Assembly (NCBI GenBank): GCA_018692355.1
Contig: JABHKE010000144.1
Coordinates: forward strand, 1-32,753
Direction of reading: 5' to 3'
Origin: Fidelibacterota bacterium
GTDB lineage: Bacteria; Fidelibacterota; Marinisomatia; Marinisomatales; UBA1611
Length of the DNA: 32,753 nucleotides
Shown: positions 20,405 through 31,804 of the stretch, one piece after another
Position numbering within the stretch: position 1 is the first letter of the stretch
Layout: each line of letters opens with the position of its first letter
Program-made: the position numbers and the translations under genes
Notes under the pieces: generated by a model
Databases searched by the model: none
The model's input: only the letters and a program-made list of their open reading frames with translations
What the model was told of the DNA's origin: nothing

Positions 20405-22973
20405 CTAAAGTTTTAAGTGCTTCCAGGGGCGTCATTGAATTCACATCCAATTCATTCAGCTTTTTGCGCAATTTTAATTCTTGTTCCTGGAACAGTGTTA
20501 TCTGGTTGGACGGTTCTGGCGGCGTAGAAGTTCCACCTTTTTCCACAGATTGCTGAATATGATGGTTCAGTATCTCCGTTGCACGATGAATCACTGATTT
20601 TGGTAATCCTGCCATTTGTGCCACATGAATTCCATAACTTTTATCAACTGATCCTTTTGCTATAGAGCGAAGAAATACTATTTTATCTCCAAATTCTTTC
20701 ACTTCCACATGGTGGTTCTCAACTCGTTCCAAGAGTGATTCCAGATCTGTTAATTCGTGGTAATGGGTTGCAAATAAAGTACGAGCCAAAACACCTTCTG
20801 TGTTGTGAAGAAATTCTGTTATAGCCCACGCCAGAGAAAGGCCATCAAATGTGGCTGTCCCTCGACCAATCTCATCTAGCAGGATCAAACTGCTATTCGT
20901 AGCATTATTCAAAATATTGGCGGCCTCGTTCATTTCCACCAAAAAGGTACTTTCACCACCAGCAAGATTATCACTGGCTCCTACTCGAGTAAACAATTTA
21001 TCTGCTACTCCAATTTTCGCTGAATTAGCCGGAACAAAACTTCCAATCTGAGCCATTAATACAATGAGTCCAACTTGTCTTAAATAAGTGGATTTCCCTG
21101 CCATATTGGGTCCCGTAATTAAGTGGATCTGGTTGATCTTAGAATCTATAGAGAGATCATTAGGGATAAATTTATCGGTAGATGGCAGCAACTGTTCAAC
21201 GACAGGATGACGCCCTTGGTTAATCTCCAATTCCGGATTATTTGTCAATTCCGGGCGAACAAAATTCTGGTTCAATGAAGTTGTAGAAAATCCAACCAAA
21301 AGATCCATCCGATTGATAGCTTTTGCATTGGTGTGAATATCAGAAATGGTGCCCAATAAGAATTGGCACAATTCAGAGAAAATATTGGATTCTATCGTAA
21401 ATATTTTTTCTTCTGCATTGAGAATTTTATCTTCATATTCTTTTAATTCTTCGGTGATATATCGTTCGGAATTAACGAGGGTTTGTTTCCTAATAAATGC
21501 TTCTGGGACTTTATCCTGATGGACTTTGGTTACTTCGATGTAATAACCAAATACCCTGTTAAATCCCACCTTTAGCTTTGGAATGGCCAATTCTTCTCGC
21601 AATGAACTCTGAAAATTGTCTATCCACTCTTTCCCGGAATTAAGTAAAGTTCGTAATTCATCAAGATCACTATCCACACCTTTACAAATTATATTCCCCA
21701 TTTTGACCTGTATCGGTGTATCTTGATTGATTAGAGATAAAATCTTTTCAGTGATCGAATTTGTATCAATAAATGATTTTGCCAATAATGCCAAGTTTTG
21801 ATCGTCTGCTGATATTAATTCTTTTTGCCAATCCGGAATTTTCTGCAAAGTAAGTGCGATCCCTATCACATCTCGGGGCGACGCTTTCCCATGATTCACT
21901 TTTCCAAGAATACGCTCCAAATCAGCTGTTTTGCTTAACGATTCTCGTATTGATTTCATGAGTCTAACATTTTTAGAAAAAGCATCAACCAAATCCAACC
22001 TTGCATTGATTCTTTTAATATCAGTCAGTGGATAATGGAGCCATCGTCGAAAAAGTCTGCCTCCACCAGCAGTTTGGGTTTCGTCGATACAATCCACCAA
22101 TGTTCCATGCGTCCCTTGTGTGGACAAACTTTGGAAAACTTCCAAATTCCGAATTGTAAATCCATCTAACCCCATAAAACCTTCGTTAAAAACTGGGACT
22201 ATTTTAGATACATGATCCAGAGCGGAACTCAAATTGGATTTAATGTGATGCAACAAAGCACCCCCTGCTGAGATAGCTAATTTCAATTCATCACACCCGA
22301 ATCCTTTTAAGGATTTAAGATTAAAATGTTGGGTCAGTGCTCTGTATGATGAATCTTCATCAAAAATCCAACTTTCAATCTGCGTAATAAATGGACGAAA
22401 TTCACGGTACCATTCTGTGGTAGAATAAACCACACTTTCATCCAAGATCATTTCACTGGGAGAGAATTTTAACAAATTATCTTTTAATTGGTCCACAGGA
22501 CATTCACCAATATGGAATTCTCCTGTTGATGGATCCAGGAAAGCAAATCCGGCAAAATTCTTTTGAAAGGTTACAGAACCAATATAACGGTTGGATTTTT
22601 TACTCAATGCCTGGTCGCTTATAAGTGTCCCGGGTGTTACAACTTCAATCACTTCCCGTTTCACGATCCCCTTGGCTAATTTCGGGTCCTCTACTTGTTC
22701 GCAAATGGCCACACGATGCCCCGCCTTCACCAATTTTGGGAGATAATTATCTAAGGAATGATACGGAAAACCGGCCAATGCCACATTGGATGCTTTTCCA
22801 TTAGCCCGTTTGGTCAAAACAATTCCAAGAACCTTGGCAGTAATTTCCGCATCTTCCAGAAAAGTCTCGTAAAAATCACCCATCCTGAATAACACCAGCG
22901 TATCTTCATATTGCGATTTCACTTCCAGAAATTGCTTCATGACCGGTGTTTGTGCGATGACATCCTTACCCAT
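20376..22973 (-). CDS. mutS: DNA mismatch repair protein MutS
   Basis: TPVMKQFLEVKSQYEDTLVLFRMGDFYETF, GPNMAGKSTYLRQVGLIVLMAQIG, LLDEIGRGTATFDGLSLAWA; a C-terminal NQITLFQ resembles a beta-clamp-binding motif. Confidence 0.97.
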   Translation of the reverse strand: MGKDVIAQTPVMKQFLEVKSQYEDTLVLFRMGDFYETFLEDAEITAKVLGIVLTKRANGKASNVALAGFPYHSLDNYLPKLVKAGHRVAICEQVEDPKLAKGIVKREVIEVVTPGTLISDQALSKKSNRYIGSVTFQKNFAGFAFLDPSTGEFHIGECPVDQLKDNLLKFSPSEMILDESVVYSTTEWYREFRPFITQIESWIFDEDSSYRALTQHFNLKSLKGFGCDELKLAISAGGALLHHIKSNLSSALDHVSKIVPVFNEGFMGLDGFTIRNLEVFQSLSTQGTHGTLVDCIDETQTAGGGRLFRRWLHYPLTDIKRINARLDLVDAFSKNVRLMKSIRESLSKTADLERILGKVNHGKASPRDVIGIALTLQKIPDWQKELISADDQNLALLAKSFIDTNSITEKILSLINQDTPIQVKMGNIICKGVDSDLDELRTLLNSGKEWIDNFQSSLREELAIPKLKVGFNRVFGYYIEVTKVHQDKVPEAFIRKQTLVNSERYITEELKEYEDKILNAEEKIFTIESNIFSELCQFLLGTISDIHTNAKAINRMDLLVGFSTTSLNQNFVRPELTNNPELEINQGRHPVVEQLLPSTDKFIPNDLSIDSKINQIHLITGPNMAGKSTYLRQVGLIVLMAQIGSFVPANSAKIGVADKLFTRVGASDNLAGGESTFLVEMNEAANILNNATNSSLILLDEIGRGTATFDGLSLAWAITEFLHNTEGVLARTLFATHYHELTDLESLLERVENHHVEVKEFGDKIVFLRSIAKGSVDKSYGIHVAQMAGLPKSVIHRATEILNHHIQQSVEKGGTSTPPEPSNQITLFQEQELKLRKKLNELDVNSMTPLEALKTLDEIKKEHGL

Positions 22974-24831
22974 TCAAAGAATGTCCTTTCAAGCGCACAT
23001 TTTCATGTCGAATAGTAAAATGTTTCTTATCGAGATATTCCAACAGTGGAATCGCCGTTTTACGTGTGAGCCCTGTTATTTCTTTAAAATCCGCCACAGC
23101 CAATTGCTCCTTCGACTTGAAATATTCATGAATATCATGAATAACCTTATCAAGATTGGAACGGTTTAGCCAAAAGTTATTTCCAAGATTTTCCACCTTT
23201 CCCTGGGCAAATAACAAGTGAATCAGATCCCCCACCCGTTTGGGCTTGAATCCGGACACTTCTATGATCTCTTTGAGTAGAGTCGGCTCAAATCCGGATT
23301 GAGTTAAAATGGATTCAATTTTTCCCAATTCTTCCAAATCCTTTTTAGAAAACTCAGGCTTATAACCCGCAAGAGAGAACCCTCCTTTTTCTTCTGAAAT
23401 AACGCCATTTTCTAATTGGATTTTCATGACAATCTCAAGCCAGTCTTCCGACCATTTAAGTTGGTTTAATATTCCATCGGTGCTCAGGACAGATCGGAAT
23501 GGATTCTTTTCATAAGTATCATCAAAATAGGATATTAAATCTTTCTTTCCCTTTTCCAATCCGAACTCAGAGTATAGAATTCCACTCTCCGATTCCATTA
23601 CATGTATTTCAACGATCCAACTCTGTAAAATATCGTTAGAAATAAAAAATAACTTCTGCCATTTTTCTCTCGATTTGGGTGTTTTCCAATCTTCATCGAT
23701 CAAATAACCAAACCGTTCCTTCGGATCGATGGGAAGGCTATCGGTGCGATGCCGCAATACTGACCATTTTCCAAGTGGTTTAGGATCTATCACTAATCCG
23801 CCTGCAATCGTATCCATGGGAGAATAAGATCGAACTATAAACCGGTCATCCATAGCTACAGCAACAGGCGATTCAAGATCAATGATAACATTCCCGGATT
23901 GACCTTTTTCTAATTTTTTTCCAGAAACTCGCCCTAGGATCTCAGAAGTTCCCATATGGAAACGTAACCGCTGTTTATTCTTAATAATCCAATCTGTTGA
24001 ATTCGTCATAGAAATATTCGCAAGGATACGGTTGGATGACTGCAAACAATCCGGAATAGCAAGAACGGTCCCACGGGTTAGATCTGAAGATTTTACATGG
24101 GAAAGATTCAGTGCAGCACGATCTCCTGATAAAACGGTTTTGGTTGCACCACCATGGGTTTGGATACCACGAATTTTAGTTTTAATACCTGATGGTAGAA
24201 TCTCAATATCATCTCCATTCTGGGCAGAACCATTCTGGACCGTACCGGTTACAACTGTACCAAATCCGGTTTTTGAAAAAACGCGATCCACATTCAGTCG
24301 AAATTGTACAGAAGAAGACTTTGATTGATAATTTTCAGCCAAGGATAAAATATCAGATTTCAGGCCTTCAACCCCATCTCCGGTTAGATTATTAATTCGG
24401 TGGATAGAGATAGAATCAAAACCAATGTCATCCAATAATTCAGAAATATCCAATTCAACCAGATCCAGCCATTCACTATCATTCACCAGATCGGTTTTGG
24501 TCAGGGCAACTATGCCTTTATTCACACCAAGAAGTGTGAGGATATTCAGGTGTTCACGGGTTTGGGGCATCACACCATCATCTGCAGCAATTACCAACAA
24601 ACCAAAATGGATATTTGCTGCACCTGCAGCCATATTTCTGATAAATTTTTCGTGGCCAGGAACATCAATAATGGTGATGTTTTCAGTAAGATAAGCAAAG
24701 CCAAGATCAATGGTCATTCCCCGTTTTTTCTCTTCCGCAAGTCGATCTGTATTGGTCCCAGTTAAGGCTTTAACCAGAGATGTTTTACCATGGTCAATGT
24801 GACCTGCAGTTCCCACCACAACTTGCGACAT
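22966..24831 (-). CDS. selB: Selenocysteine-specific elongation factor SelB
   Basis: [61 protein letters not shown]; ~620 aa with C-terminal winged-helix region. Confidence 0.95.
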
Positions 24832-24833
24832 GG

Positions 24834-26198
24834 TTAGACCTCCTGAATTGCAATTGATAGCCGTTTAATTTGATTGGGTAAAACGGATTTCAGATCAATA
24901 TAAAATGTATTTTTTTTTATATATCCAACTACTGGAATGGAACCGCAACGGAATGACTTGGCAAGGTCCTTGGACTTCCCATTTTTGGGTGAAAAACTTA
25001 AGGATGCACTTTCAATCTTATCATCCGGTAAAGAACCACTCCCCGCTTCTACTTCAGAGTCCACCAGTAAAATTCCCAAATCTTTAATTGTTTTTTTCTG
25101 CAATGAATCCAAAACCTTTTGTCCACGGGTTTTTAATACCTTTCGCGATGTGGTTAGCATGGTGAGAGAAAGATTATCTTTCGAGAATGATTGGGATCTA
25201 TAAGACCGTAACGTTTCTTCTAAAAGTCCGATGGTTACCTTATCACATCTTAAAACACGATATAATGGATTTTTCTTACAGGCATTAATCCATTTCTTGC
25301 GGCCCACCATGAGGCCGGATTGCGGTCCACCCAGGAGTTTATCTCCTGAGAATGAAATAATATCTGGCCCGCTATTTACAATGGATTTTACTGGAATTTC
25401 GTCCGCCAGACCCAACAGATTCATATCAAGCAGAGCACCGCTTCCAAGATCCGCCATGACGGGTATCTTATGTTTCTTACCAAAATTGACTAGATCAGAC
25501 AAAGAGACTTCTTTGGTAAACCCTTTTACTACATAATTGCTGGTATGAACCCATAGGATCAATTTCGTTTTATTGGAAATGGCTTTTTCGTAATCTTTTA
25601 AATGTGTACGATTCGTGGCTCCTACTTCTTTCAGGATTGCACCACTTTTTTCAATTATATCAGGAATCCTGAAAGAGCCACCTATTTCCACCATTTGTCC
25701 ACGGGAACAGATTACTTCTCCACCTTGAGCCATTTCGTTCAAAGCTAGGAATACAGCAGCAGCATTATTATTTACCACCATGCCCGCTTCTGCGTCACAC
25801 ATTGAACTCAATTGCTCCTGGATCAAAGTTTGTCGATCGCCGCGATTGCCGGATTCCAAATCAAATTCAAGATTAACATAACCATCCAAGCGATCCGCCA
25901 AATCTTTTAATTGTTTACCGCGAAAAGGTGCTCGGCCAAATCCAGTATGGAGTACAATACCAGTACCATTAATTACATTGACCAGTTTGGGAGCAGATTG
26001 TAATAATACTTGGGATGCAATATGACTTAATAACTCCCCCTTAGTTTTGGATAATTCCCCTTTCCTAATATTTGCCCTGATCTTTGTTAATTCCGAATTT
26101 ATAATATATTTTATATAATCTTCATGAAGTAATATATTTCCATTCAGTTCAAGTAATACTTGATGTACGGATGGACAGTCTTTCAGGGTGGTTTTCAT
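24834..26198 (-). CDS. selA: L-seryl-tRNA(Sec) selenium transferase SelA
   Basis: NVINGTGIVLHTGFGRAP, GDRQTLIQEQL, VVNNNAAAVFLALN, ISFSGDKLLGGPQSGLMVGRK. ATG at 26198 preferred to the track TTG at 26210. Confidence 0.95.
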   Translation of the reverse strand: MKTTLKDCPSVHQVLLELNGNILLHEDYIKYIINSELTKIRANIRKGELSKTKGELLSHIASQVLLQSAPKLVNVINGTGIVLHTGFGRAPFRGKQLKDLADRLDGYVNLEFDLESGNRGDRQTLIQEQLSSMCDAEAGMVVNNNAAAVFLALNEMAQGGEVICSRGQMVEIGGSFRIPDIIEKSGAILKEVGATNRTHLKDYEKAISNKTKLILWVHTSNYVVKGFTKEVSLSDLVNFGKKHKIPVMADLGSGALLDMNLLGLADEIPVKSIVNSGPDIISFSGDKLLGGPQSGLMVGRKKWINACKKNPLYRVLRCDKVTIGLLEETLRSYRSQSFSKDNLSLTMLTTSRKVLKTRGQKVLDSLQKKTIKDLGILLVDSEVEAGSGSLPDDKIESASLSFSPKNGKSKDLAKSFRCGSIPVVGYIKKNTFYIDLKSVLPNQIKRLSIAIQEV

Positions 26199-26236
26199 AA
26201 TAAGGGGCAAGAAGTTCTAACGAATCAGCCTTCAGT

Positions 26237-27472: not shown

Positions 27473-27820
27473 CTACCGTTTTTCTTCGATACGGGCTGCT
27501 TTTGAGCCGATGATATTTTTCAAATAGTTCAGTTTTGCTCGACGAACTTTTCCACGACGCTTCACATCAATGGAAGCAAGCATGGGTGAATGGAGCGGGA
27601 AGATCCTTTCAACCCCAAAACCATTCGCCACTTTCCGTACTGTGAATGTTGCATCCAGGCTTGTTCCGCCATGGCGTGCAATCACAACACCTTCATAACG
27701 CTGCACCCGCTCTTTACTCCCCTCACGGACACGTACGTCAACGGCAACCGTATCTCCTGACCTAAAGTCAGGAATATCCGATTTCAAAAATTCTTTTGTT
27801 GCTTCTACTACTTTATGCAT
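27473..27820 (-). CDS. rplS: 50S ribosomal protein L19 (bL19)
   Basis: [69 protein letters not shown]. Confidence 0.97.
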
Positions 27821-28538
27821 GATTTATCTCCGATTCTTTCATTTTTTCAAATTTTTCCCAGAGATCCGGTTTCTTTTCTTGAGTCCGTTTCTCTTTTTGT
27901 TCCTGCCTCCAAGCTTCAATTTTTGCATGATAACCGCCCAATAATACCTCCGGAACTTCCATTCCATCGATCTCACGTGGATGGGTATAATGTGGATGGT
28001 CTAACAGATCCTGCGAAAAAGAATCCGTTAATGCCGAATCCAGATTATTGAGCGTTCCTGGGATGAGCCGAACTGTACTGTCCAACATCACCATGGCAGG
28101 AATCTCACCACCGGTCATGACAAAATCACCCAGAGAATACTCATGCGTCACATATTTTTCCATGACACGTTCATCTATTCCCTTGTAATGTCCACAAATA
28201 ACAATAAGCTTTTCTTGTTGACTGGTTTCTTCAGCTATTTCCTGATTCCATATTTTTCCTTGGGGCGACGGATAAATTACCCGCACATTATCAGGGCCAC
28301 CAACCAACTCCATGGCATGATCTATCGCCTTAAAAAGTGGCTCTGCCATTAAAACCATTCCACTTCCACCGCCAAAAGGTGTATCATCAATCTGACGATA
28401 ACTCCCTTTCCCAAAATCTCGGAGATTTACAATATGGAATTCAACCACATTTTTCTCCACAGCTTTCCGAAGAATACTGTTCTGGATCAGGGTGTCAATA
28501 ACATCCGGAACCGGCGTTATGACAGAAATTTGGATCAA
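27813..28538 (-). CDS. trmD: tRNA (guanine(37)-N1)-methyltransferase TrmD
   Basis: [55 protein letters not shown] start overlapping the rimM TGA (TTGA). Confidence 0.96.
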
Positions 28539-29038
28539 TCCAGTAAACCTTCCATAGGAGAGATCACAATTACACCTTGTTCATGATTAATACCTTTAAC
28601 CACTTCCGGGATCACGGGAATTAGAAATTCCTTTCCTCCATTTGTGATAACATAAACATCACTGTGAGGTAGCCACATTACATCTTTCAGGATGCCAACA
28701 AGATCCCCCGATTCTGAAAAAACCTCATATCCCAACAGATCTTTTCCGATCATGTTAATTTGATCTTCTCTCGATGCTTCGATAAAAATGGTTTGACCCA
28801 CAATTTTCTCTGCATCGGAGACCGTATCAACACCTTCGAATTTAAACCGTCTCTTTTTTCCCATTCCTGTCACGATCTCAAGACGAACATCTTCAGAAGT
28901 ATCAGGTGAAAATCCCAACATGAGTTGTTTGCCTTCGATATAGTCATCGAAATATCGGGATAAAGGTCGTAACCGTACATCTCCAGTAAGTCCGGAAGTT
29001 GTAGTTATGGTTGCAATGGGGTGGACAAGGTTTTTCAT
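28535..29038 (-). CDS. rimM: Ribosome maturation factor RimM
   Basis: TTTSGLTGDVRLRPLSRYF, DLLGYEVFSESGDLVGILKDVMWLPHSDVYVI, EFLIPVIPEVV; between khpA and trmD. Confidence 0.93.
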   Translation of the reverse strand: MKNLVHPIATITTTSGLTGDVRLRPLSRYFDDYIEGKQLMLGFSPDTSEDVRLEIVTGMGKKRRFKFEGVDTVSDAEKIVGQTIFIEASREDQINMIGKDLLGYEVFSESGDLVGILKDVMWLPHSDVYVITNGGKEFLIPVIPEVVKGINHEQGVIVISPMEGLLD

Positions 29039-29272
29039 CTAGTCAATCACATCCAATCGAGCTCTTTTACCGCCTTCCTTGGCATTTATCGCAAAAACCA
29101 GTGTTCGAAGTGCAGATATATTACGCCCGCCCTTACCGATCACTTTTCCATAATCACCATCGCCAACGGTTAATTCGTAAATGAGTCGCTGTTCAGTTTC
29201 AACAATCTCAATATTAACCTCATCTGGTTTATCAACCAGGAGTTTAATCGCCTGTTCAATGAACTCTAACAT
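29039..29272 (-). CDS. khpA: KH-domain RNA-binding protein KhpA
   Basis: 77 aa; GKVIGKGGRNISALRTLVFAINAKEGGKRARLDV (KH GxxG motif); SD GGAGGA upstream of ATG. Confidence 0.92.
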   Translation of the reverse strand: MLEFIEQAIKLLVDKPDEVNIEIVETEQRLIYELTVGDGDYGKVIGKGGRNISALRTLVFAINAKEGGKRARLDVID

Positions 29273-29315: not shown

Positions 29316-30461
29316 TTATTTTTCTTTTGAAGTAGCCTTTTGATCTTGGTCTTCATCGGATGTTTCATCAGCAGATTCAGCTACCGGAGCTTCATCACTT
29401 GAATCATCTACTGGCTCTTTTTCATGTGTTTCTTCAGCAGATTCATCCGCGGAGGTTTCATCTTCTGCTTCGCTATCTTCCTCCACTGGAGTCTCCTCAT
29501 TAGAAATTTCGGTAGATTCCTCTTCGTCTGATGATTCCTCTTCCGGTGCGATTTCTTCACTCGATTCTTCCGTTACTTCAGGCTCATCTGCACTTTCTTC
29601 AGTTGATTCTTCTCTAGAAGGTGACTCTTCAACACTCTCTGCTGGTGTTTCATCAGCAGATTCAGTTTCATCTTCTTGAGATTCTCCTTCAGTTGGCGAA
29701 TCTTCTATAAGTTCAGCTTCAGATGATTCATCGGTTGTAAACTCTGCGTTAGAACTTGCGTCGTCAGATTCATCAGCGGAAGTTTCATCTTCTGCTTCGC
29801 TATCTTCATCCACTGGAGCATCTTCATTAGAAATTTCGGTAGATTCGTCTTCGTCTGATGATTCATCTTCAGGTGCGATTTCTTCACTCGATTCTTCCGT
29901 TACTTCAGGTTCATCTGCACTTTCTTTAGTTGATTCTTCTCCAGCAGGTGCTTCTTCAACTTCTTCAGTTGGCGCATCTTCTATAGGTTCAACTTCAGGT
30001 GATTCTTCTACTGGTACTTCAACCACCACTTTTTCTGAAGCGGTATCGTCTTCGTCTGCTTCAACCGCTTCCACAGCAACAGCTTTTTCTTTTTCATCTG
30101 CTTTCTTTTCAGCGCGATCAGCACGGGCTTTTTGCACATCTTCCCGGTTCATCTCCCATTTTTTCATCTCTTTTTCAATCTGGGCTTCATCCAGGCCTTG
30201 TTTTATCAAATGCCATTGATGGGCAATCCCTGCACGGCGTAATAATTTATGTGCAGCTTCGGTGGGCTGTGCACCTTCACCTAGCCAATGTATAACCCTT
30301 TCACCTTTCAGATCATAAGAACGATCTACATCAATTGGATTGTACCAGCCCAATTCTTCAATTGCAGCACCATCACGGCGATTCCGAGAATCCATTACAA
30401 CCATTCTGTAAAAAGGTCTATTTCGACGTCCTATTCGTTTGAGTCTTATTTTCGTCGCCAA
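29316..30461 (-). CDS. rpsP: 30S ribosomal protein bS16 with a ~250-aa acidic C-terminal extension
   Basis: MATKIRLKRIGRRNRPFYRMVVMDSRNRRDGAAIEELGWYNPI is canonical bS16; an open frame continues to residue 381. TTG start with AAGGAG (plus 69-74 of 304xx: ctcctt at 30469-30474) 7 nt upstream. Confidence 0.93.
   Translation of the reverse strand: MATKIRLKRIGRRNRPFYRMVVMDSRNRRDGAAIEELGWYNPIDVDRSYDLKGERVIHWLGEGAQPTEAAHKLLRRAGIAHQWHLIKQGLDEAQIEKEMKKWEMNREDVQKARADRAEKKADEKEKAVAVEAVEADEDDTASEKVVVEVPVEESPEVEPIEDAPTEEVEEAPAGEESTKESADEPEVTEESSEEIAPEDESSDEDESTEISNEDAPVDEDSEAEDETSADESDDASSNAEFTTDESSEAELIEDSPTEGESQEDETESADETPAESVEESPSREESTEESADEPEVTEESSEEIAPEEESSDEEESTEISNEETPVEEDSEAEDETSADESAEETHEKEPVDDSSDEAPVAESADETSDEDQDQKATSKEK
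29438..29613 (-). repeat. Copy 1 of the direct repeat inside the rpsP tail
   Basis: Aligns without gaps to 29765-29940 (offset 327 nt = 109 codons); my hand count is 165/176 identical. Confidence 0.9.
29765..29940 (-). repeat. Copy 2 of the direct repeat inside the rpsP tail
   Basis: See copy 1 at 29438-29613. Confidence 0.9.
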
Positions 30462-30472
30462 TTTGTATCTCC

Positions 30473-31804
30473 TTAATTAAATCTTTCGAGACCACCCAAT
30501 CCGGGTAATTTCATGTTTTTCATTTTTCCCATTTTTTTCATCATTTTCTTCATCTGAGAAAACTGATTCAAAAGGGCATTTATTTCCTGTACCGAACGTC
30601 CACTTCCTTTTGAGATCCGCAATCTGCGACTGCCATTAATGATCTCCGGTTGCTGACGCTCACCCGGTGTCATAGAATTGATGATCGCTTCTGTCCATCC
30701 GACTTGACGGTCATCCATATTCAATTGTTTTAAAGCTTTCGAGTTCATACCAGGCATCATGCCGATGATCTGGCTCATAGAACCCATTTTTTTCATTTGC
30801 TGTAATTGCATTTTGAAATCATCCAGATCAAAAGTATTCTTTACCAGTTTTGTCTGAAAATCCTTTGCCTGGTCCTCATCAAAAACGTCCTGGGCTTTTT
30901 CCACGATGGAAACCACATCTCCAAATCCAAGGATTCGATCTGCAATTCGTTTCGGATCAAAAACTTCCAACCCATCTAATTTTTCAGACGTTCCAATAAA
31001 TTTGATAGGTTTACCCGTCACTTCACGGATTGAAACTGCTGCTCCACCTCGAGAATCGCCATCCATTTTTGTCAGGATTACACCTGATAACGGGAGCACT
31101 TCGTGAAAAGCCTGTGCTGAATTCACAGCATCTTGCCCCGTCATGCCATCCGCAACAAAGATGATCTCGTCGGGGTCAGACATATCAGCAATCTGCTGAA
31201 TTTCTGTCATCATTTCGCCATCTAGATGGAGTCGCCCGGCTGTATCCAAGATTACAACATCATTTTTCAAAGATCGTGCTTCTTCAATTCCCCGTTTGCA
31301 AATCGCCAACGGTTCTCCGGCTCCTTCTTCGTAAACCGCCACATCTGCCTGTTGCCCCACAGTGATTAATTGTTGGACAGCAGCGGGACGGTACACATCA
31401 GCGGCAACCATCAAAACCGATTTACCGGATTTTTGCAACCGATAAGCCAGTTTCCCTGCAGTGGTCGTTTTTCCGGCCCCTTGAAGGCCAGCCAATAAAA
31501 TAACAGCCGGATTGTTCTTCAAGACCAAGTCTTTTGAATCGGTTCCCAAAAGGATAACCAATTCATCGCGAATGATCTTCACGAATTGCTGACCCGGTTT
31601 CACCGATTTCAGGACCTTTGTCCCCTGCGCTTTATCATGCACAGTATTGACAAAAGATTTAGCCACATTGAAGTTCACATCAGCATCTATCAATGCCCGT
31701 CGAACTTCCCGAACAGTATCATTGATATTCTTATCAGTTATTTTACCCAGACCTCGAACATTTCGAAGAATAGATTCAAACCTTTCTGTGATGTGACCAA
31801 ACAT
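30473..31804 (-). CDS. ffh: Signal recognition particle protein Ffh
   Basis: LLAGLQGAGKTTTAGKLAYRLQ, DTAGRLHLDGEMMTE, TKMDGDSRGGAAVSI, Met-rich M domain (MKKMMKKMGKMKNMKLPG). Confidence 0.97.
   Translation of the reverse strand: MFGHITERFESILRNVRGLGKITDKNINDTVREVRRALIDADVNFNVAKSFVNTVHDKAQGTKVLKSVKPGQQFVKIIRDELVILLGTDSKDLVLKNNPAVILLAGLQGAGKTTTAGKLAYRLQKSGKSVLMVAADVYRPAAVQQLITVGQQADVAVYEEGAGEPLAICKRGIEEARSLKNDVVILDTAGRLHLDGEMMTEIQQIADMSDPDEIIFVADGMTGQDAVNSAQAFHEVLPLSGVILTKMDGDSRGGAAVSIREVTGKPIKFIGTSEKLDGLEVFDPKRIADRILGFGDVVSIVEKAQDVFDEDQAKDFQTKLVKNTFDLDDFKMQLQQMKKMGSMSQIIGMMPGMNSKALKQLNMDDRQVGWTEAIINSMTPGERQQPEIINGSRRLRISKGSGRSVQEINALLNQFSQMKKMMKKMGKMKNMKLPGLGGLERFN

What the first reader, a model, noticed from the sequence alone, without database searches (positions are those of the whole stretch)
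29316..30071. Ribosomal protein bS16 carries a ~250-aa, almost purely acidic disordered tail
Seen directly: a normal bS16 domain (residues ~1-115) is followed in frame by a tail dominated by E/D/S/T/A/P, with very few K/R and a single aromatic (one F) from residue ~131 to 381. bS16 is typically ~80-100 aa; modest charged extensions are known in some Bacteroidetes-type S16 proteins, but this is two to three times the length of the globular domain. An acidic brush on the 30S body could recruit basic factors, act in assembly, or buffer ions. The function is inference.
Basis: partly seen in the sequence, partly recalled or inferred. Interest (0 to 1): 0.62.

Follow-up and report, generated by a model that had tools for sequence, protein, structure and literature searches.

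The report
Ribosomal protein with hypervariable acidic tail
In a little-studied phylum of mostly marine bacteria, one ordinary ribosome protein (bS16) carries a long, floppy, strongly negatively charged tail that changes length quickly between species but keeps its acidic make-up, and at least three other ribosome proteins in the same genome carry shorter tails of the same kind.

Summary
The ORF at 29316-30461 (-) is a true bS16 (rpsP, in the trmD operon) of a Candidatus Neomarinimicrobiota MAG. Residues 131-381 hold 113 D/E against 7 K/R and one aromatic. AlphaFold gives a bS16 domain (to ~90), a helix (92-137) and no structure from ~150 to the end. It is not an oddity of this genome. 155 bS16 genes from 26 families of the phylum all carry a C-terminal extension, 28-348 aa in the 129 complete ones. 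This one ranks 6th in length and 3rd in acidity. Tails grow by in-frame tandem repeats, differ up to threefold within a genus, and evolve about five times faster than the core, but still under purifying selection (median pN/pS 0.28 against 0.05). The same genome has encoded acidic tails on bS6, uS2 and bL25, and none on most other r-proteins read. So this is a lineage-wide acidic-tailed ribosome with bS16 as the extreme case: a new variant of known r-protein extensions (P. gingivalis 192 aa, F. johnsoniae 188 aa, C. acnes). Most likely the tail acts through composition, as a solvent-exposed electrostatic brush / RNA-mimic limiting off-target contacts of bS16 and 30S. That function is inferred. 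Tolerated repeat expansion is the close rival.

The parts
29316..30461 (-). rpsP, complete bS16 ORF, 381 aa, TTG start
   Evidence: PF00886 83.2 bits, TIGR00002 101.2 bits
30192..30461 (-). bS16 globular domain, residues 1-90
   Evidence: pLDDT mostly above 90; Foldseek matches to bS16 of solved ribosomes over ~80-90 residues
30051..30188 (-). long helix, residues 92-137, conserved across the phylum up to about residue 116 (e.g. E98, K101, W102)
29319..30050 (-). acidic disordered tail, residues 138-381
   Evidence: pLDDT below 50 almost throughout 152-381; net -5 to -11 per 20 residues throughout
29756..29997 (-). tail repeat, first copy in the protein
29429..29670 (-). tail repeat, second copy, 86% identical, 327 nt away; 7 of 20 amino-acid changes between copies are D/E swaps
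30469..30474 (-). Shine-Dalgarno AAGGAG for rpsP, overlapping the ffh stop codon (30473-30475)
   Evidence: sequence; the same motif upstream of relatives
30473..31804 (-). ffh (SRP54), upstream neighbour
29039..29272 (-). KH-domain protein (KhpA-like), downstream neighbour
28535..29038 (-). rimM
27813..28538 (-). trmD
27473..27820 (-). rplS (bL19), no tail

Best explanation
Shown: a genuine bS16 with a helical extension and a long, disordered (predicted), polyanionic C-terminal tail; the extension is present in every bS16 examined in Neomarinimicrobiota, hypervariable in length, expanded by in-frame tandem repeats, and under weak purifying selection; similar encoded tails sit on bS6, uS2 and bL25. 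Inferred: the tail works through composition rather than sequence. It leaves the 30S surface from the end of the rod-like helix (about 230 disordered residues, comparable in reach to the subunit) and acts as an electrostatic brush and RNA-mimic. It would screen the basic face of free or newly made bS16 against off-target RNA and hold mature 30S away from nucleic acid and from other ribosomes. Length is nearly free because only the amount of negative, non-sticky chain matters. The description is near-certain; the confidence given is for the mechanism.
For: 129 complete bS16 from 26 families: tail 28-348 aa, net charge median -22; 117 of 124 gap-free tails net negative; essentially no aromatics. 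In 39 close pairs the tail pN/pS is 0.28 against 0.05 in the core. Between the two internal copies, differences concentrate at third codon positions (19 of 35, p 0.011) and 7 of 20 amino-acid changes are D/E swaps. 226 of 230 repeat-array calls in the tails have a period divisible by 3. The charge profile is consistent: strongly basic residues 1-20, a basic junction at 100-120, then about -5 to -6 per 20 residues. AlphaFold shows no structure beyond ~150. In solved ribosomes the Bacteroidota extensions are largely unmodelled: 85 of 188 residues present in F. johnsoniae, 97 or 118 of 192 in P. gingivalis. Tails recur on bS6 (median 69 aa, net -23) and bL25 (44 aa, net -18). Adding four Glu to the C-terminus of bS6 changes translation in Pseudomonas fluorescens (PMC7343187), so an acidic 30S tail can have an effect.
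Against: No direct functional data. Charge is not universally kept: some tails are near neutral (G141 +4, G160/G161 +3, G022 +1), and f19/f23 tails end in a Lys/Ala/Pro-rich basic block. uS2 tails are of mixed charge. Tails as short as 28 aa suffice in some species. Purifying selection could merely remove harmful (sticky, basic or truncated) variants. The sequences are from MAGs, and the repeats make exact lengths uncertain.
Confidence: 0.4

Rival explanations
1. Tolerated expansion: replication slippage at an E/A/P/S-rich, solvent-exposed C-terminus lengthens the tail; selection only keeps it soluble and non-sticky, and the length has no function of its own.
For: 73 of 124 tails carry tandem arrays; length varies up to threefold within a genus (87-270 in g1, 51-154 in g25); pN/pS is about five times that of the core. 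Short tails persist. Charge is not always acidic.
Against: An extension is present in all 155 genes examined over 26 families; net negative in 117 of 124; it recurs on specific r-proteins and not on most others in the same genome. It is costly in an abundant protein, even in genomes of ~1 Mb (f15).
Confidence: 0.35
2. Translational modulator: the tail reaches the mRNA entry side of the 30S and tunes initiation or mRNA choice, like RimK polyglutamylation of bS6 but fixed in the gene.
For: In C. acnes the bS16 extension runs to uS4 near the mRNA entrance (PMC10085706). Four added Glu on bS6 shift translation of a gene set (PMC7343187). bS6 tails co-occur here.
Against: The C. acnes rationale (short h17) is not met: h17 in relatives is E. 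coli-sized (77 against 76 nt over positions 430-505). Where this tail lies on the 30S is unknown.
Confidence: 0.12
3. Recruitment tether: the tail binds one or more specific basic proteins (assembly factor, hibernation factor, nascent r-proteins).
For: High acidic density could bind basic r-proteins; rimM lies in the same operon.
Against: No conserved motif survives in the tail beyond the helix and a frequent SEEE/DEEE end in family f1; length and sequence are hypervariable.
Confidence: 0.08
4. General adaptation to salt: an acidic proteome as in salt-in halophiles.
For: The phylum is largely marine (established knowledge); tails are acidic.
Against: No other ORF of the window comes close (next -12 per 60 aa against -31); most r-proteins read in the genome have no tail.
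Confidence: 0.03
5. Assembly or annotation artefact.
For: Repetitive region; 26 of 155 relatives' contigs end inside the tail and several have N runs there.
Against: In-frame tails, nearly all acidic, in 129 complete genes, with codon-level purifying selection. Only the exact length is in doubt.
Confidence: 0.02

Closest known systems
Bacteroidota bS16 (P. gingivalis 9i5v, 192 aa; F. johnsoniae 7jil, 188 aa; NCBIfam NF011094/PRK14521)
   Same: bS16 domain, then a charged extension with an E/A-rich end; extension largely unmodelled in the structures
   Different: Shorter (~90-100 residues past the domain), A/E/K mixed rather than almost purely acidic; this protein scores 100 bits against that model's cut-off of 209
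Actinobacterial bS16 (C. acnes 8crx, 147 aa; mycobacteria 156-162 aa)
   Same: C-terminal extension of bS16, its end without EM density (PMC10085706)
   Different: 65-residue extension with an ordered part on uS4, argued to go with a short h17; h17 is not short in the present lineage
RimK-polyglutamylated bS6 (E. coli, Pseudomonas)
   Same: Acidic C-terminal tail on a 30S protein that alters translation (PMC7343187)
   Different: About 4 Glu added after translation to bS6; here up to ~350 encoded residues, mainly on bS16
bL25 (CTC/TL5 type) with acidic C-terminus
   Same: Encoded D/E-rich end on an r-protein; present in the same genome
   Different: Short (33-56 aa after residue 180) with an even length; bS16 tails vary 28-348

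Membership tests
Ribosomal protein bS16 | Family profile above curated cut-off | tested here: met
   PF00886 83.2 against 27; TIGR00002 101.2 against 45.3
Ribosomal protein bS16 | ffh-rpsP-rimM-trmD-rplS gene order | tested here: met
Ribosomal protein bS16 | Incorporation into the 30S | not testable with these tools
   Needs ribosome proteomics; it is the only bS16 match found in this (86% complete) genome
Bacteroidota-type long bS16 (NF011094, PRK14521) | Score above the equivalog cut-off of 209 | tested here: not met
   100.4 bits
Long bS16 NF011093 (PRK14520) | Score above the equivalog cut-off of 165 | tested here: not met
   101.2 bits
C. acnes-type structural bS16 extension | Goes with a short 16S h17/V3 | tested here: not met
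   V3 178 against 177 nt in E. coli for G004 of the same genus; no 16S was found in the own genome
C. acnes-type structural bS16 extension | Contact with uS4 | not testable with these tools
   Needs a ribosome structure
RimK-type acidic tail | Glutamates added after translation | tested here: not met
   The tail is encoded
Intrinsically disordered polyelectrolyte tail | Low hydropathy, high net charge, low predicted structure | tested here: met
Salt-in acidic proteome | Acidity across the proteome | tested here: not met
   Window ORFs and most r-proteins show none; the whole proteome was not scanned

The most novel reading that the evidence does not exclude
A whole phylum has ribosomes with several polyanionic, fast-evolving disordered arms (bS16 up to ~350 aa, bS6 up to 170, bL25, sometimes uS2) that function collectively through charge, as an electrostatic corona controlling assembly, spacing or mRNA access; such a tail set has not been described as a system in the literature I could search.
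Probability: 0.35. Interest if true: 0.7.

Novelty: new variant of a known kind. Interest (0 to 1): 0.46.

Why it matters
Ribosomal proteins are thought of as compact, basic and slowly evolving. Here a near-universal bacterial r-protein carries an acidic, repeat-built chain longer than its own domain, kept across a phylum while its sequence turns over. It offers a natural series (28-348 aa) for testing what charge and length of a disordered arm do to a ribosome, and it warns that bS16 genes are assembly breakpoints in these MAGs. The conserved UUG start of the same gene adds a clue to control of the trmD operon, whose regulation is reported as unknown (PMC10931766).

Tried and rejected
Short-h17 compensation as in C. 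acnes: tested on relatives' 16S, not met. Coordinated tail budget: bS16 and bS6 tail lengths are uncorrelated (rho -0.06); the bS16-uS2 length correlation (rho 0.51 over genomes) weakens to 0.26 (not significant) on family means, though net charges still correlate there (0.67). The absence of stops in tails was not used as evidence because ORFs are defined by it. Tandem Repeats Finder at its default threshold found nothing in the window; the repeat only showed with the repeat finder. Rfam found no leader or other RNA in the window. Paper searches for acidic or disordered bS16 tails in Marinimicrobia or Bacteroidetes returned nothing on the subject. The single genome-contig scan gave only 12 loci, so phyla outside Neomarinimicrobiota were judged from PDB sequences alone.

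Full report
What is there. The minus-strand ORF 29316-30461 encodes 381 aa, starts at TTG and is preceded by AAGGAG. It is bS16: PF00886 83.2 bits, TIGR00002 101.2 bits, in the order ffh, rpsP, KH protein, rimM, trmD, rplS. Related records are mostly titled Candidatus Neomarinimicrobiota, and the window is contig C63 of an 86%-complete MAG.

Anatomy. AlphaFold2 on an alignment of 58 sequences gives a confident bS16 fold to about residue 90, a confident long helix 92-137, and pLDDT under 50 almost throughout residues 152-381. The helix is conserved across the phylum to about residue 116 (W102 in 54 of 58, E98 in 52 of 58). Residues 131-381 contain 113 acidic and 7 basic residues. Two copies of a ~242-nt unit, 327 nt apart, are 86% identical; their differences favour third codon positions (19 of 35, p 0.011), and 7 of the 20 amino-acid changes swap D and E. 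The next most acidic 60-aa stretch in the window has net -12 against -31 here.

Relatives. 155 bS16 genes from 26 families of the phylum were extracted. All extend past the core. Among 129 complete genes the tail is 28-348 aa (median 109) and the median net charge is -22. The window's tail (270 aa from residue 112, net -105) is 6th in length and 3rd in charge. Of 124 without sequence gaps, 117 are net negative. Exceptions matter: a few are near neutral, and f19/f23 tails end in a basic Lys/Ala/Pro block.

Evolution. In 39 close pairs the median pN/pS is 0.28 in the tail and 0.05 in the core. 73 of 124 tails contain tandem arrays, and 226 of 230 array calls have a period divisible by three. Lengths within single genera range 87-270 (g1), 51-154 (g25) and 37-155 (g77). 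So the tail is real coding sequence under weak purifying selection, with fast length turnover. 26 of 155 contigs end inside the tail, against 1 of 71 bS6 and 0 of 71 uS2 genes; the latter sets were partly chosen, so this is a rough control.

Other ribosomal proteins. In the same genome bS6 (79-aa tail, -23), uS2 (77 aa, -14) and bL25 (45 aa, -22) also have acidic ends and bL21 a Lys-rich one, while uL2, uL3, uL4, uL16, uL22, uL23, uS3, uS7, uS9, uS10, uS12, uS19, uL13, bL9, bL12, bL19, bL27 and bS18 show none. Across the phylum bS6 tails have median 69 aa and net -23 (n=70) and uS2 tails 37 aa with mixed charge (n=71; one of 309 aa with net 0); in 31 genomes of the same order bL25 tails have median 44 aa and net -18.

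Known comparisons. The longest bS16 chains among the PDB matches listed are P. gingivalis 192 and F. johnsoniae 188 aa; only 97-118 and 85 residues of these are in the coordinates compared by Foldseek. In C. acnes a 65-aa extension contacts uS4, which the authors link to a short h17 (PMC10085706). h17 in three full 16S genes and two partial ones of the present order is E. coli-like in length, so that rationale does not transfer. RimK adds about 4 Glu to bS6 and an encoded 4-Glu version changes translation in P. fluorescens (PMC7343187).

Mechanism. Composition kept and sequence free point to a bulk electrostatic or entropic role: screening the basic face of bS16 from off-target RNA and forming a brush on the 30S. 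This is inference. The main rival is tolerated slippage with selection only against harmful composition; present data cannot separate the two. Specific docking is less likely because no motif persists.

Start codon. rpsP begins with TTG in 126, GTG in 15 and ATG in 13 of 155 genes (one unassigned); all 13 ATG cases are family f15. The neighbouring KH gene is ATG in 107 of 108 and ffh in 55 of 56. The SD of rpsP overlaps the ffh stop codon, suggesting coupling. A review states that regulation of the trmD operon is unknown (PMC10931766).

Noticed in passing
window 30459-30461; 155 relatives: Conserved non-AUG start of rpsP: 126 TTG, 15 GTG, 13 ATG (all ATG in family f15), while neighbours ffh and the KH gene are almost always ATG; possible translational control or attenuation of bS16.
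   Followed up: partly
26 of 155 bS16 loci, e.g. L003, L022, L109, L151: Contigs of relatives end inside the bS16 tail, or carry N runs there, unusually often; the repeats look like assembly breakpoints or strain-variable sites, so bS16 may be missed or truncated in MAGs of this phylum.
   Followed up: partly
L166, L167 (family f23), L099 and L112 (f19): bS16 tails ending in a Lys/Ala/Pro-rich, histone H1-like basic block (in L166, L167 and L099 after an acidic block).
   Followed up: no
L255 (G039): uS2 with a 309-aa C-terminal extension of zero net charge (polyampholyte).
   Followed up: no
16S of relatives (L172-L176), E. coli positions 198-225: The h10 region is about 10 nt longer than in E. 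coli in all five relatives compared.
   Followed up: no
G132 contigs C8 and C17: Two bS16 matches of equal score with open frames of 244 and 176 aa; strain variants or a duplicate.
   Followed up: no
window 22966-26210: selB and selA adjacent, so this organism probably makes selenoproteins; TGA may be read as selenocysteine in some genes.
   Followed up: no
many family f1 bS16 tails: A recurrent C-terminal end SEEE/DEEE in family f1, absent from the window's own protein (ends SKEK).
   Followed up: no
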